Part shown: piece after piece, positions 50,928-59,266 of the stretch | Layout of the letters: the number at the start of each line of letters is the position of its first letter | How positions within the stretch are numbered: position 1 is the stretch's first letter | DNA from: Koleobacter methoxysyntrophicus | GTDB taxonomy: Bacteria; Bacillota; Thermosediminibacteria; Koleobacterales; Koleobacteraceae | Direction: 5' to 3' | Assembly: GCF_017301615.1 (NCBI RefSeq) | Contig: NZ_CP059066.1 | Location: 2,405,001-2,468,887, forward strand | DNA: 63,887 nt | The notes under the pieces: model-generated | Seen by the model: the letters and a program-made list of their open reading frames with translations, nothing else | Told to the model about the DNA's origin: nothing | Database searches by the model: none | Translations under genes and position numbers: made by a program

Positions 50928-50947
50928 TCTAATAAATATTATCCCTA

Positions 50948-53900
<2,953 letters not shown>

Positions 53901-56147: not shown

Positions 56148-56176
56148 TTGACAGCGAATCTGCCTTCAATTATAAT
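56148..56176 (+). promoter_or_regulatory. Promoter of the serine T-box transcript
   Basis: Exact TTGACA (56148-56153), 17-bp spacer, exact TATAAT (56171-56176); start near 56183. Confidence 0.85.
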
Positions 56177-56207: not shown

Positions 56208-56502
56208 GTTAACTCAATGAAGGGGAATAGTAAAGTGAATCCTTTTTCAGAGAATCGGTGGTTGGTGCAAACCGATAAAGGGTTTTCTTGAATCCACCCC
56301 GGAGATGCTGGTGATGAATCAAGCCGGGTTTGCCCGTTATAGCATTAAAGAGGGCTGTAATGCCAAAAAGGGTGGCAACGCGGGATAATCTCGTCCCTTA
56401 TAGTTTTAAAAACTGTAACGGACGGGATTTGTTTTTATTACAGCTGAAGAAGGGTGGCAACACGGGAATCGTCTCGTCCCTTATGTTAGGGCGAGATTTT
56501 TT
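56208..56502 (+). promoter_or_regulatory. T-box leader, serine specific, with two antiterminator/terminator modules
   Basis: One Stem I (caatgaaggggaatagta at its base) with specifier ttgaa-TCC-acc (TCC, Ser, 56293-56295) and one Stem II/III block (ccgggtttgcccgtta). Then two T-box cores: ggtggcaacgcggg (56371-56384) with terminator atctcgtcc/ggacgggat plus T-run (56388-56436), and ggtggcaacacggg (56453-56466) with terminator ctcg-cccta/aggg-gag and T-run (56473-56502). The cores are 82 nt apart, consistent with a diverged tandem duplication. Controls the aminotransferase-serA pair. Confidence 0.92.
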
Positions 56503-56538: not shown

Positions 56539-57690
56539 ATGAAAAAAGGCTATTTGCGTTTACCGGGCCCTACAGAGATACCTGAGGAAGTCTTGTTAGC
56601 AATGTCTAAACCCATGATAGGGCATCGGGGAAAGGAATTCAAAGAGATTTTCAGTTCTGTTTCCGAGGAAATTAAAGGTGTTTTTCAGACCCAGAATGAT
56701 GTGCTGATATTCCCGGGAGCAGGAACGGGAGGACTGGAAGCCGCAATAGTAAACCTATTTTCTCCTGGCGATAAGGTCTTATTGATAAGTGTAGGGGTAT
56801 TTGGCAATAGATTTGGAGAAATCGCTGAAAGATTTCATTTAGATGTAGAAAAAATTGAGTTTCAATGGGGAAAAACCTTTGACCTTCAGATAATAAAAGA
56901 AAGAATAGATAAAGATAAAGGAGGGAAGATCAAAGGAGTAATAGTTACCCATAACGAAACATCTACAGGGGTATTAAATGATATTTCCTCTCTAAAGGAC
57001 GTTTTGAGAAACCATTCTGCCCTGTTAATTGTTGATGCAGTGAGTTCTTTAGGAGCCGTAGATCTCAAAACCGATGAATGGGGTATAGACGTGGTTGTTA
57101 CCGGTTCACAGAAAGCTTTAATGCTGCCGCCCGGTCTAACCTTAATAAGTATAAGCCCTAAAGGGTGGGATGCTGTGGAAAAATCCCAAATTCCTAAATA
57201 TTATTGGGATTTTAAAAAAGCAAAAAATAACCTGATTAAAGGTCAGACACCATATACTCCGGCAATTTCATTAATTTTTGGATTAAAAGAATCACTTAAA
57301 TTGATATATAAAGAAGGCTTGGATAATATTTTCAGCAGACATATTCTCCTTAGCAAGGCATTCAGAGAAGGAATTAAATGTATGGGTTTAACCCCATTTG
57401 CAGACGACCATTGTGCATCTCCTACAGTAACAGCAATAAAGGTACCTGATGGTATAGAACCTTCAAAATTGAGAAAAAAAATGGCAGATGAGTTTAGAAT
57501 GGATATTGCTGGTGGTCAGCAAAAATTACAGGATACAATAATTCGGGTGGGTCATATGGGGTACGTTGATAAACTGGATATTATAAGTACTTTATGGGCA
57601 CTTGGCATGACATTGGAAGAATTAGGATTTGGTGCTGATATAACTTCAGCCATCAAAAAAGCGCAGCAGGTATTGAAAAAGGAGGGTTAA
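56539..57690 (+). CDS. Class V aminotransferase (serine-pyruvate/alanine-glyoxylate type)
   Basis: 383 aa PLP enzyme: 'RLPGPTEIPEEVL', 'GAGTGGLEAA', 'VVDAVSSLGAVDL' and PLP lysine in 'TGSQKALMLPPGL'. By sequence it is an alanine-glyoxylate/serine-pyruvate aminotransferase; with serA next door and a serine T-box in front it probably supplies the amino group in serine synthesis. ATG start behind aaaggagg. Confidence 0.9.
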   Translation: MKKGYLRLPGPTEIPEEVLLAMSKPMIGHRGKEFKEIFSSVSEEIKGVFQTQNDVLIFPGAGTGGLEAAIVNLFSPGDKVLLISVGVFGNRFGEIAERFHLDVEKIEFQWGKTFDLQIIKERIDKDKGGKIKGVIVTHNETSTGVLNDISSLKDVLRNHSALLIVDAVSSLGAVDLKTDEWGIDVVVTGSQKALMLPPGLTLISISPKGWDAVEKSQIPKYYWDFKKAKNNLIKGQTPYTPAISLIFGLKESLKLIYKEGLDNIFSRHILLSKAFREGIKCMGLTPFADDHCASPTVTAIKVPDGIEPSKLRKKMADEFRMDIAGGQQKLQDTIIRVGHMGYVDKLDIISTLWALGMTLEELGFGADITSAIKKAQQVLKKEG

Positions 57691-57691
57691 T

Positions 57692-59266
57692 ATGAGGATA
57701 CTAATAAGTGATAGAATTTCAGATAAAGGTATAAAAATACTTGAAAAGGAGTTTCAGGTTGACGTAAAGACGGGGCTTACAGAGGAAGAACTCATAAACG
57801 AAATAAAACATTATGATGCTTTGATTGTCAGGAGCAGTACCAAAGTTACAAAAAAAATTATTGACAGTGCACAAAAACTTAAAGTTATCGGAAGGGCTGG
57901 TGTAGGAGTCGATAATATTGACGTTTCAGCTGCAACTCAAAAAGGTATATTGGTAGTAAATGCTCCGGAAGGTAATACTATTGCAGCAGCTGAACATACC
58001 CTTGCAATGCTCCTTTCTTTGTCGCGGAAGATTCCTCAAGCATCAGCTTCATTGAAAGCAGGCAACTGGGACAGAAAGGGATTTATGGGGGTTGAAGTAA
58101 AAGGGAAAATCCTTGGAATTATCGGGTTAGGGAGAATAGGTAAGGAGGTTGCAAAAAGAGCCAAATCGTTCCAGATGAATATAATTGCCTATGATCCCTA
58201 TATTTCCCAGGAAAATGTTTTCAAAGAAGATATTGAACTTGTAGAATTTGAAACCCTTATAAGCAAATCGGATTTTATAACCCTGCATATTCCCCTTACG
58301 CCTGATACAAAATATATCCTCGGTGAAAAGGAATTTAAAATGATGAAAAAAGGGGTAAGGATAATTAACTGTGCCAGAGGAGGAATAATTGATGAAAACG
58401 CCCTTTATAATGCTATATTAGATGGAACAGTAGCTGGAGCAGCCCTGGATGTCTTTGAAACAGAACCGCCGGTAGGAAACCGATTATTGGAATTAGACCA
58501 GGTAGTTGCTACACCCCATTTAGGAGCATCGACAGAAGAAGCTCAGATAAATGTATCTATTGATGTAGCTGAGGATGTTATAAGGGCTTTAAGAAATGAA
58601 ACGGTGAAAAATGCTGTTAATATGGTTACGGTTAAGCCGGAAGAATGGAATTTCCTTTCGCCATATGTGATGCTGTCTGAGAAGTTAGGCCGATTCTATT
58701 CACAATTTAGGAACGGCAGAGTTCATAAAGTTGAAATGATATTTAAAGGCAAAATAGCCGATACCAAGACATCGATTTTAACCTCAGCGGCCTTAAAAGG
58801 CCTGCTAAATGTGATTCTTCAGGAGCCTGTAAACCTCGTAAATGCCCAGGTGGTAGCAAAAGAGCGAAATATAAAAATTATAGAAACGAAAAGCAGTGAT
58901 GTGGAAGATTACGGTAATTTACTTATTTTAAAGGTCTATACAGATAAAGGTGAAGGTGAAGTCGGAGGTACTGTTTTTGGAAACAATGATCAGAGGATAG
59001 TGCAGATAGATGAATACAAAATTGACTTAATCCCTGAAGGTAATATTATCTTGATTTCTCATACTGATAAACCGGGAATGATTGGAAAAGTTGGGTCTAT
59101 TTTAGGGAATAACGACATAAACATAGCGACAATGCAGGTGGGTAGAAAGAAGCCTAGAGGTGAGGCTGTAATGGCTCTGACTGTGGATGAATATGTTAAT
59201 GAAAAAATTTTAAGGGAAATAGCTGAAATAGAAGGAATTGAAGATCTAAAATTTGTAGTATTCTAG
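57692..59266 (+). CDS. serA: D-3-phosphoglycerate dehydrogenase
   Basis: First step of serine synthesis. 524 aa long form: substrate domain, NAD domain with 'GIIGLGRIGKEVAKRA', catalytic 'NCARGGIIDENALY' and 'TPHLGASTEEAQ', the intervening ASB domain (about 320-440) and C-terminal ACT domain ('ILISHTDKPGMIGKVGSILG'), which usually binds serine. ATG start behind aggaggg, two bases after the aminotransferase stop. Confidence 0.96.
   Translation: MRILISDRISDKGIKILEKEFQVDVKTGLTEEELINEIKHYDALIVRSSTKVTKKIIDSAQKLKVIGRAGVGVDNIDVSAATQKGILVVNAPEGNTIAAAEHTLAMLLSLSRKIPQASASLKAGNWDRKGFMGVEVKGKILGIIGLGRIGKEVAKRAKSFQMNIIAYDPYISQENVFKEDIELVEFETLISKSDFITLHIPLTPDTKYILGEKEFKMMKKGVRIINCARGGIIDENALYNAILDGTVAGAALDVFETEPPVGNRLLELDQVVATPHLGASTEEAQINVSIDVAEDVIRALRNETVKNAVNMVTVKPEEWNFLSPYVMLSEKLGRFYSQFRNGRVHKVEMIFKGKIADTKTSILTSAALKGLLNVILQEPVNLVNAQVVAKERNIKIIETKSSDVEDYGNLLILKVYTDKGEGEVGGTVFGNNDQRIVQIDEYKIDLIPEGNIILISHTDKPGMIGKVGSILGNNDINIATMQVGRKKPRGEAVMALTVDEYVNEKILREIAEIEGIEDLKFVVF

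What the first reader, a model, noticed from the sequence alone, without database searches (positions are those of the whole stretch)
56208..56502. Serine T-box with one sensor and two successive antiterminator/terminator modules
Only one Stem I with specifier TCC is present, but the T-box core occurs twice, 82 nt apart, each with its own terminator. A transcript must pass two decision points, possibly needing two tRNA-Ser binding events or giving a tighter off state. Tandem full T-boxes are known; a duplicated expression platform under a single sensor is rare.
Basis: partly seen in the sequence, partly recalled or inferred. Interest (0 to 1): 0.7.

Follow-up and report, generated by a model that had tools for sequence, protein, structure and literature searches.

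The report
Serine T-box switch with two gates
A tRNA-sensing RNA switch ahead of serine-synthesis genes has one tRNA sensor but two successive stop/go gates, a known but mechanistically unexplained layout; comparison with about 100 relatives suggests that the second gate reuses half of a helix from the first, so one bound tRNA could be checked twice.

Summary
Window 56208-56502 holds one complete serine T-box (RF00230, 130.6 bits; specifier UCC) and a second T-box core 82 nt downstream, each with its own antiterminator and terminator and no second Stem I. It sits behind a 12/12 consensus promoter and ahead of a class-V aminotransferase gene and serA. Both cores carry UGGC, matching the genome's tRNA-Ser(GGA), which ends GCCA.

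The layout is not unique. It occurs five times among the 23 T-boxes of this genome and in 38 of 398 species drawn from the phylum (reversed-pattern control: 0). A 2020 review already calls such 'partially tandem T-boxes' known, with unknown mode of action.

New here: in short-spaced examples, this one included, the second module has no Stem III of its own. The strand before core 2 pairs instead with the existing Stem III 5' strand (here 56353-56362 with 56436-56445, 10 bp; shuffle p 0.0025), looping module 1 out. So one Stem I and one shared half-helix could serve two successive checks by one tRNA. Long-spaced examples bring their own second Stem III. Double-module T-boxes control biosynthesis and transport genes and essentially never aminoacyl-tRNA synthetases, which fits a low-leak off state. 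None of this has been tested at the bench.

The parts
56148..56176 (+). sigma-A promoter TTGACA-N17-TATAAT
   Evidence: 12 of 12 consensus matches
56208..56401 (+). complete T-box leader (Stem I to antiterminator 1)
   Evidence: RF00230, 130.6 bits, model 1-219
56214..56306 (+). the only Stem I (AGAGA / GGUG apical loops)
   Evidence: model alignment; no second Stem I match
56293..56295 (+). specifier UCC (Ser), followed by A
   Evidence: GAATCCACC at 56290; tRNA-Ser(GGA) gene present
56353..56364 (+). Stem III of module 1 (GGC-UGUAAU-GCC, 3 bp, weak)
   Evidence: orthologue G002 has a longer Stem III GGCUGUGAAA/UUUCAUAGCC
56353..56362 (+). 5' strand shared by Stem III and Stem III'
   Evidence: GGCUGUAAUG pairs with 56436-56445
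56368..56399 (+). antiterminator 1; T-box bulge UGGC at 56373-56376
   Evidence: folds at -10.0 kcal/mol
56387..56439 (+). terminator 1 hairpin (56387-56429) and U-rich tail
   Evidence: -21.9 kcal/mol
56436..56445 (+). 3' strand of Stem III' (UAUUACAGCU), 7 nt before the second GGUGG
   Evidence: 10 bp with 56353-56362, -15.4 kcal/mol stacking, shuffle p 0.0025, cross-locus p 0.010
56450..56482 (+). antiterminator 2; T-box bulge UGGC at 56455-56458
   Evidence: -10.4 kcal/mol; RF00230 fragment, model 161-216
56472..56502 (+). terminator 2 hairpin and U run
   Evidence: -15.2 kcal/mol
56539..57690 (+). class-V aminotransferase, 383 aa, first regulated gene (serine-pathway aminotransferase by context)
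   Evidence: PF00266, 8e-30; no NCBIfam equivalog reaches its cut-off, best BhcA-like 361.9 of 650
57692..59266 (+). serA, phosphoglycerate dehydrogenase
   Evidence: TIGR01327, 716 bits, cut-off 454

Best explanation
This is a transcriptional serine T-box with one tRNA sensor and two successive tRNA-dependent terminators in front of a serine-biosynthesis operon. RNA polymerase must pass two gates. At gate 1, uncharged tRNA-Ser(GGA), held by Stem I, pairs its GCCA end with UGGC of antiterminator 1 and stops terminator 1 from forming. When polymerase moves on, the strand UAUUACAGCU invades Stem III and pairs with its 5' strand GGCUGUAAUG. This new helix, Stem III', encloses module 1 and places antiterminator 2 at nearly the same distance from the shared strand, and so from Stem I and the bound tRNA, that antiterminator 1 had. 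The acceptor end is then read again at the second UGGC. Leak past either gate by charged tRNA or no tRNA must occur twice, so the off state is lower and the response steeper. Shown by sequence: one Stem I, two cores, two terminators, UGGC twice, matching tRNA, serA downstream, significant Stem III' complementarity here and in relatives. Inferred: co-transcriptional strand exchange, use of one tRNA twice, lower leak.
For: Anatomy. The tRNA-Ser(GGA) gene ends in GCCA, and both bulges are UGGC. In all five double leaders of this genome both bulges match the tRNA discriminator: Ser and Trp UGGC with G73; Tyr (two leaders) and Phe UGGU with A73. Across 105 loci the variable base agrees between modules in 95, against 61 expected and a shuffle maximum of 79. 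Stem III' in this leader: 10 bp, shuffle p 0.0025, cross-locus p 0.010; with both antiterminators held, the Stem III' state folds 3.6 kcal/mol lower than the Stem III state (-35.0 vs -31.4). Unselected same-register test in 30 short-spaced modules: mean run 4.53 bp vs 1.20 shuffled (maximum of 1000: 2.53); non-redundant set of 21: p 0.0002. By class, shared-strand vs own second Stem III is 18 vs 11 below 100 nt and 4 vs 36 above (Fisher 6e-6). Triples L064 and L186 reuse the same 5' strand at core 2 and core 3. Orthologue G003: 14-bp Stem III' against 6-bp Stem III. Target genes: 30 of 39 single T-boxes precede synthetase genes, at most 3 of 102 double ones.
Against: Some complementarity is expected by descent: if the duplicated block carried the Stem III 3' strand, the copy pairs with the old 5' strand without any function. 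The long-spaced set shows such residual pairing (mean run 2.53 vs 1.25). In this leader Stem III is only 3 bp, and the global minimum-energy fold uses neither helix. Many short-spaced loci (27 of 56 modules) could not be classed either way. The sister genome G002 has a single-module serine leader, so the second gate is not conserved in the family. In G003 the second bulge is UGGU, not UGGC. No in vitro or in vivo data.
Confidence: 0.6

Rival explanations
1. Two independent gates without a shared Stem III: the second antiterminator is reached by the Stem I-bound tRNA through a flexible linker, and the Stem III' complementarity is a leftover of the local duplication.
For: Residual complementarity also in long-spaced leaders that own a second Stem III. 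In this leader Stem III is barely formed, so antiterminators may not need it.
Against: In short-spaced leaders Stem III' is as long as or longer than Stem III in 10 of 15 cases, against 2 of 12 in long-spaced ones. The extra pairs reach into the Stem III loop, which duplication of the 3' strand alone cannot supply (e.g. L175 14 vs 6 bp, L065 11 vs 6).
Confidence: 0.25
2. The second module is a recent, mostly non-functional duplicate; terminator 2 acts as a fixed attenuator.
For: The two modules are still very similar in sequence; the sister genome G002 has one module.
Against: Core 2, its UGGC and its own terminator are intact; the bulge base agrees between modules in 95 of 105 loci; the design recurs in many families and triples exist.
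Confidence: 0.1
3. Two tRNA molecules are needed, one per module, the second binding without Stem I.
For: Two UGGC bulges.
Against: No second specifier or Stem I between the modules. That Stem I supplies most of the tRNA affinity is established knowledge, not tested here.
Confidence: 0.05

Closest known systems
Canonical class I (transcriptional) T-box riboswitch, RF00230
   Same: Stem I with specifier, Stem II region, F-box, Stem III, antiterminator with UGGN, terminator; upstream of amino acid genes
   Different: Two antiterminator/terminator modules after one Stem I, and a second pairing partner for the Stem III 5' strand
Partially tandem T-boxes / T-boxes with duplicated terminator-antiterminator elements (review PMC7583486; Vitreschak et al. 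2008 RNA, recalled from its abstract, text not held)
   Same: One sensor, duplicated terminator-antiterminator; the review states that their mode of action is unknown
   Different: This report adds a structural split (shared Stem III strand vs own second Stem III). I could not check whether the 2008 paper already notes it
Fully tandem T-boxes (PMC12452182)
   Same: Two terminators in series, mainly biosynthesis genes; among synthetases only thrS
   Different: Those have two complete sensors, which should bind two tRNAs
Serine T-box of serA in Paenibacillus polymyxa (PMC8002221)
   Same: Serine T-box controlling serA by antitermination, shown experimentally
   Different: One terminator described, specifier AGC, UGGU bulge

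Membership tests
Class I T-box riboswitch (RF00230) | covariance-model match above gathering score | tested here: met
   130.6 bits vs 93
Class I T-box riboswitch (RF00230) | specifier codon matching a tRNA whose discriminator pairs with UGGN | tested here: met
   UCC; tRNA-Ser(GGA) ends GCCA; UGGC
Class I T-box riboswitch (RF00230) | mutually exclusive antiterminator and intrinsic terminator | tested here: met
   predicted for both modules; not shown in vitro
Class I T-box riboswitch (RF00230) | tRNA-dependent antitermination | not testable with these tools
   needs transcription assay
Partially tandem T-box | one Stem I followed by two or more T-box cores each with a terminator | tested here: met
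Fully tandem T-box | second Stem I and specifier before the second core | tested here: not met
   second match covers only model 161-216; cores 82 nt apart
Shared-Stem-III subtype (proposed here) | second core lacks its own Stem III, and the strand before it pairs with the first Stem III 5' strand | tested here: met
   10 bp, shuffle p 0.0025, cross-locus p 0.010; best own helix only -2.3 kcal/mol
Shared-Stem-III subtype (proposed here) | strand exchange occurs during transcription | not testable with these tools
   needs probing or mutants

The most novel reading that the evidence does not exclude
Short-spaced partially tandem T-boxes form a distinct class in which a single Stem III 5' strand is handed from one 3' strand to the next as RNA polymerase advances, resetting the discriminator so that one Stem I-bound tRNA is proofread two or three times before the operon is transcribed.
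Probability: 0.45. Interest if true: 0.75.

Novelty: new variant of a known kind. Interest (0 to 1): 0.5.

Why it matters
A 2020 review lists the mode of action of partially tandem T-boxes as unknown. The shared-strand model explains how one sensor can serve two gates, predicts exact compensatory mutants, and would be a natural RNA example of checking the same ligand repeatedly during one transcription event. The gene bias (biosynthesis and transport, not synthetases) gives a reason: such operons benefit from a lower off state, while synthetases need basal expression.

Tried and rejected
Second Stem I between modules: no match. Cross-module antiterminator (core 1 with the CCCUU of module 2): foldable when forced (-36.5 vs -44.9 free), no independent support, set aside. 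Duplex energies without anchoring were too noisy, so they were replaced by the anchored and unselected tests. My first anchored scan put this leader's Stem III elsewhere and called it unclassified; the Stem III region was then bounded by the orthologous leaders and retested, so this one p-value rests on a choice made after seeing it. Pattern hits with the core inside the Stem I apical loop (AGAGA just upstream...CCCG) and protein-repeat hits in other phyla were removed. Vitreschak 2008 and Gutierrez-Preciado 2009 are not held.

Full report
WHAT IS THERE. The window holds one full T-box at 56208-56401 (RF00230, 130.6 bits). A 12/12 consensus promoter lies at 56148-56176. Below it are a class-V aminotransferase gene (56539-57690) and serA (57692-59266; TIGR01327, 716 bits against a cut-off of 454). 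The specifier reads GAA-UCC-A, serine. A second T-box core starts at 56450, 82 nt after the first. Rfam sees it only as an end fragment of the model (positions 161-216), so there is no second sensor. Each core has a predicted antiterminator and a stronger terminator with a U tail: -10.0 vs -21.9 and -10.4 vs -15.2 kcal/mol. Both bulges read UGGC. The genome's tRNA-Ser(GGA) ends GCCA, so both can pair with it.

HOW COMMON. Of the 23 T-boxes found in this genome, five have one Stem I and two cores: aroF (Tyr), a sodium:solute symporter (Tyr), this operon (Ser), a phenylacetate-CoA-ligase-like gene (Phe) and trpE (Trp). The bulge base fits the cognate tRNA in both modules of all five. Among 398 genomes drawn evenly from the phylum, 38 have such a pair at 53-113 nt spacing, and the reversed control pattern has none. 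Triples exist (L064 Paenibacillus alvei, L130, L186). [quoted passage not shown] 2008 describing duplicated terminator-antiterminator elements (not held, not verified).

TWO DESIGNS. For 105 loci (108 second or third modules) I asked where the Stem III of the later module comes from. At spacings of 100 nt or more, the later module usually has its own Stem III (36 own, 4 shared, 12 unclear). Below 100 nt it usually does not, and the strand before core 2 is complementary to the 5' strand of the first Stem III (18 shared, 11 own, 27 unclear; Fisher 6e-6 for shared vs own). An unselected test in the same register gave a mean run of 4.53 bp against 1.20 with partners shuffled between loci (maximum of 1000 shuffles: 2.53). 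Redundancy reduction to 21 loci left p 0.0002. Long-spaced leaders show weaker, shorter complementarity, as expected of a duplication relic. In short-spaced ones the alternative helix equals or exceeds Stem III in 10 of 15 cases, against 2 of 12. Different families use different strands with matching partners, for example GGUUGUAAAACGAA/UUUGUUUUACAACC, UGAUGGCAUAA/UUAUGCCAUCA, GAUUUAUCCUGAAG/UUUCAGGAUAGGUC and GGUUGCU/AGCAACC.

THIS LEADER. GGCUGUAAUG (56353-56362) can pair with UAUUACAGCU (56436-56445), 10 bp, shuffle p 0.0025 and cross-locus p 0.010, against a 3-bp Stem III. With both antiterminators held, this state is 3.6 kcal/mol lower. The serine leader of G003 (same order) has 65-nt spacing and a 14-bp version; G002 (same family) has one module and an ordinary long Stem III. 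At the third position the pair is U-A in G003 and C-G here, a two-sided change.

PROPOSED MECHANISM. Gate 1 works as an ordinary T-box. After read-through, the new 3' strand displaces the old one from the shared 5' strand, encloses module 1 and sets antiterminator 2 at nearly the same distance from the shared strand. The same tRNA can then be read again. Sequence supports the parts and the pairing; the strand exchange, the single tRNA and the lower leak are inference.

WHY TWO GATES. Genes below double modules are DAHP synthase (28 of 102), class-V aminotransferases such as SerC (19), sodium:solute symporters (14), amino acid binding proteins, trpE, trpD and serA. At most 3 of 102 could be synthetases (none among the families listed). 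Single-module controls are 30 of 39 synthetases; that control is biased toward high-scoring T-boxes. Within this genome the split is 0 of 5 double against 11 of 18 single (one-sided p 0.024). This fits a need for a tight off state in biosynthesis and transport operons.

LIMITS.

Noticed in passing
own genome G000:C1:2712312-2712592 (-), L020/L275; relatives L284 and L295; outside the window: The leucine T-box of leuS carries a complete tRNA-Ala(GGC) gene nested as the apical part of Stem III (GGGUAAAAA-tRNA-UUUUUACC), 15-17 nt before the T-box core. Conserved in three families of the order and absent from the other leuS leaders of the class that could be read. Its effect on sensing and tRNA maturation is unknown.
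   Followed up: partly
L186 (G003), L064 (Paenibacillus alvei), L130: Single-Stem I T-boxes with three successive cores and terminators; in L186 and L064 cores 2 and 3 can both pair back to the same Stem III 5' strand.
   Followed up: partly
L224-L226 (G312, G095, G392): Very short-spaced double cores (62-68 nt) in which terminator 1 seems to pair with the T-box core itself (GGGUGG with CCACCC), a possibly different expression platform ahead of sodium:solute symporter-like genes.
   Followed up: no
window 50945-51163: A second, single-module T-box precedes alaS about 5 kb upstream (111.4 bits).
   Followed up: no
L187, L188, L189 (G010-G012): Long-spaced double-core T-boxes before an aspartate/aromatic-type aminotransferase gene, with a specifier that looks like GCC (Ala).
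   Followed up: no
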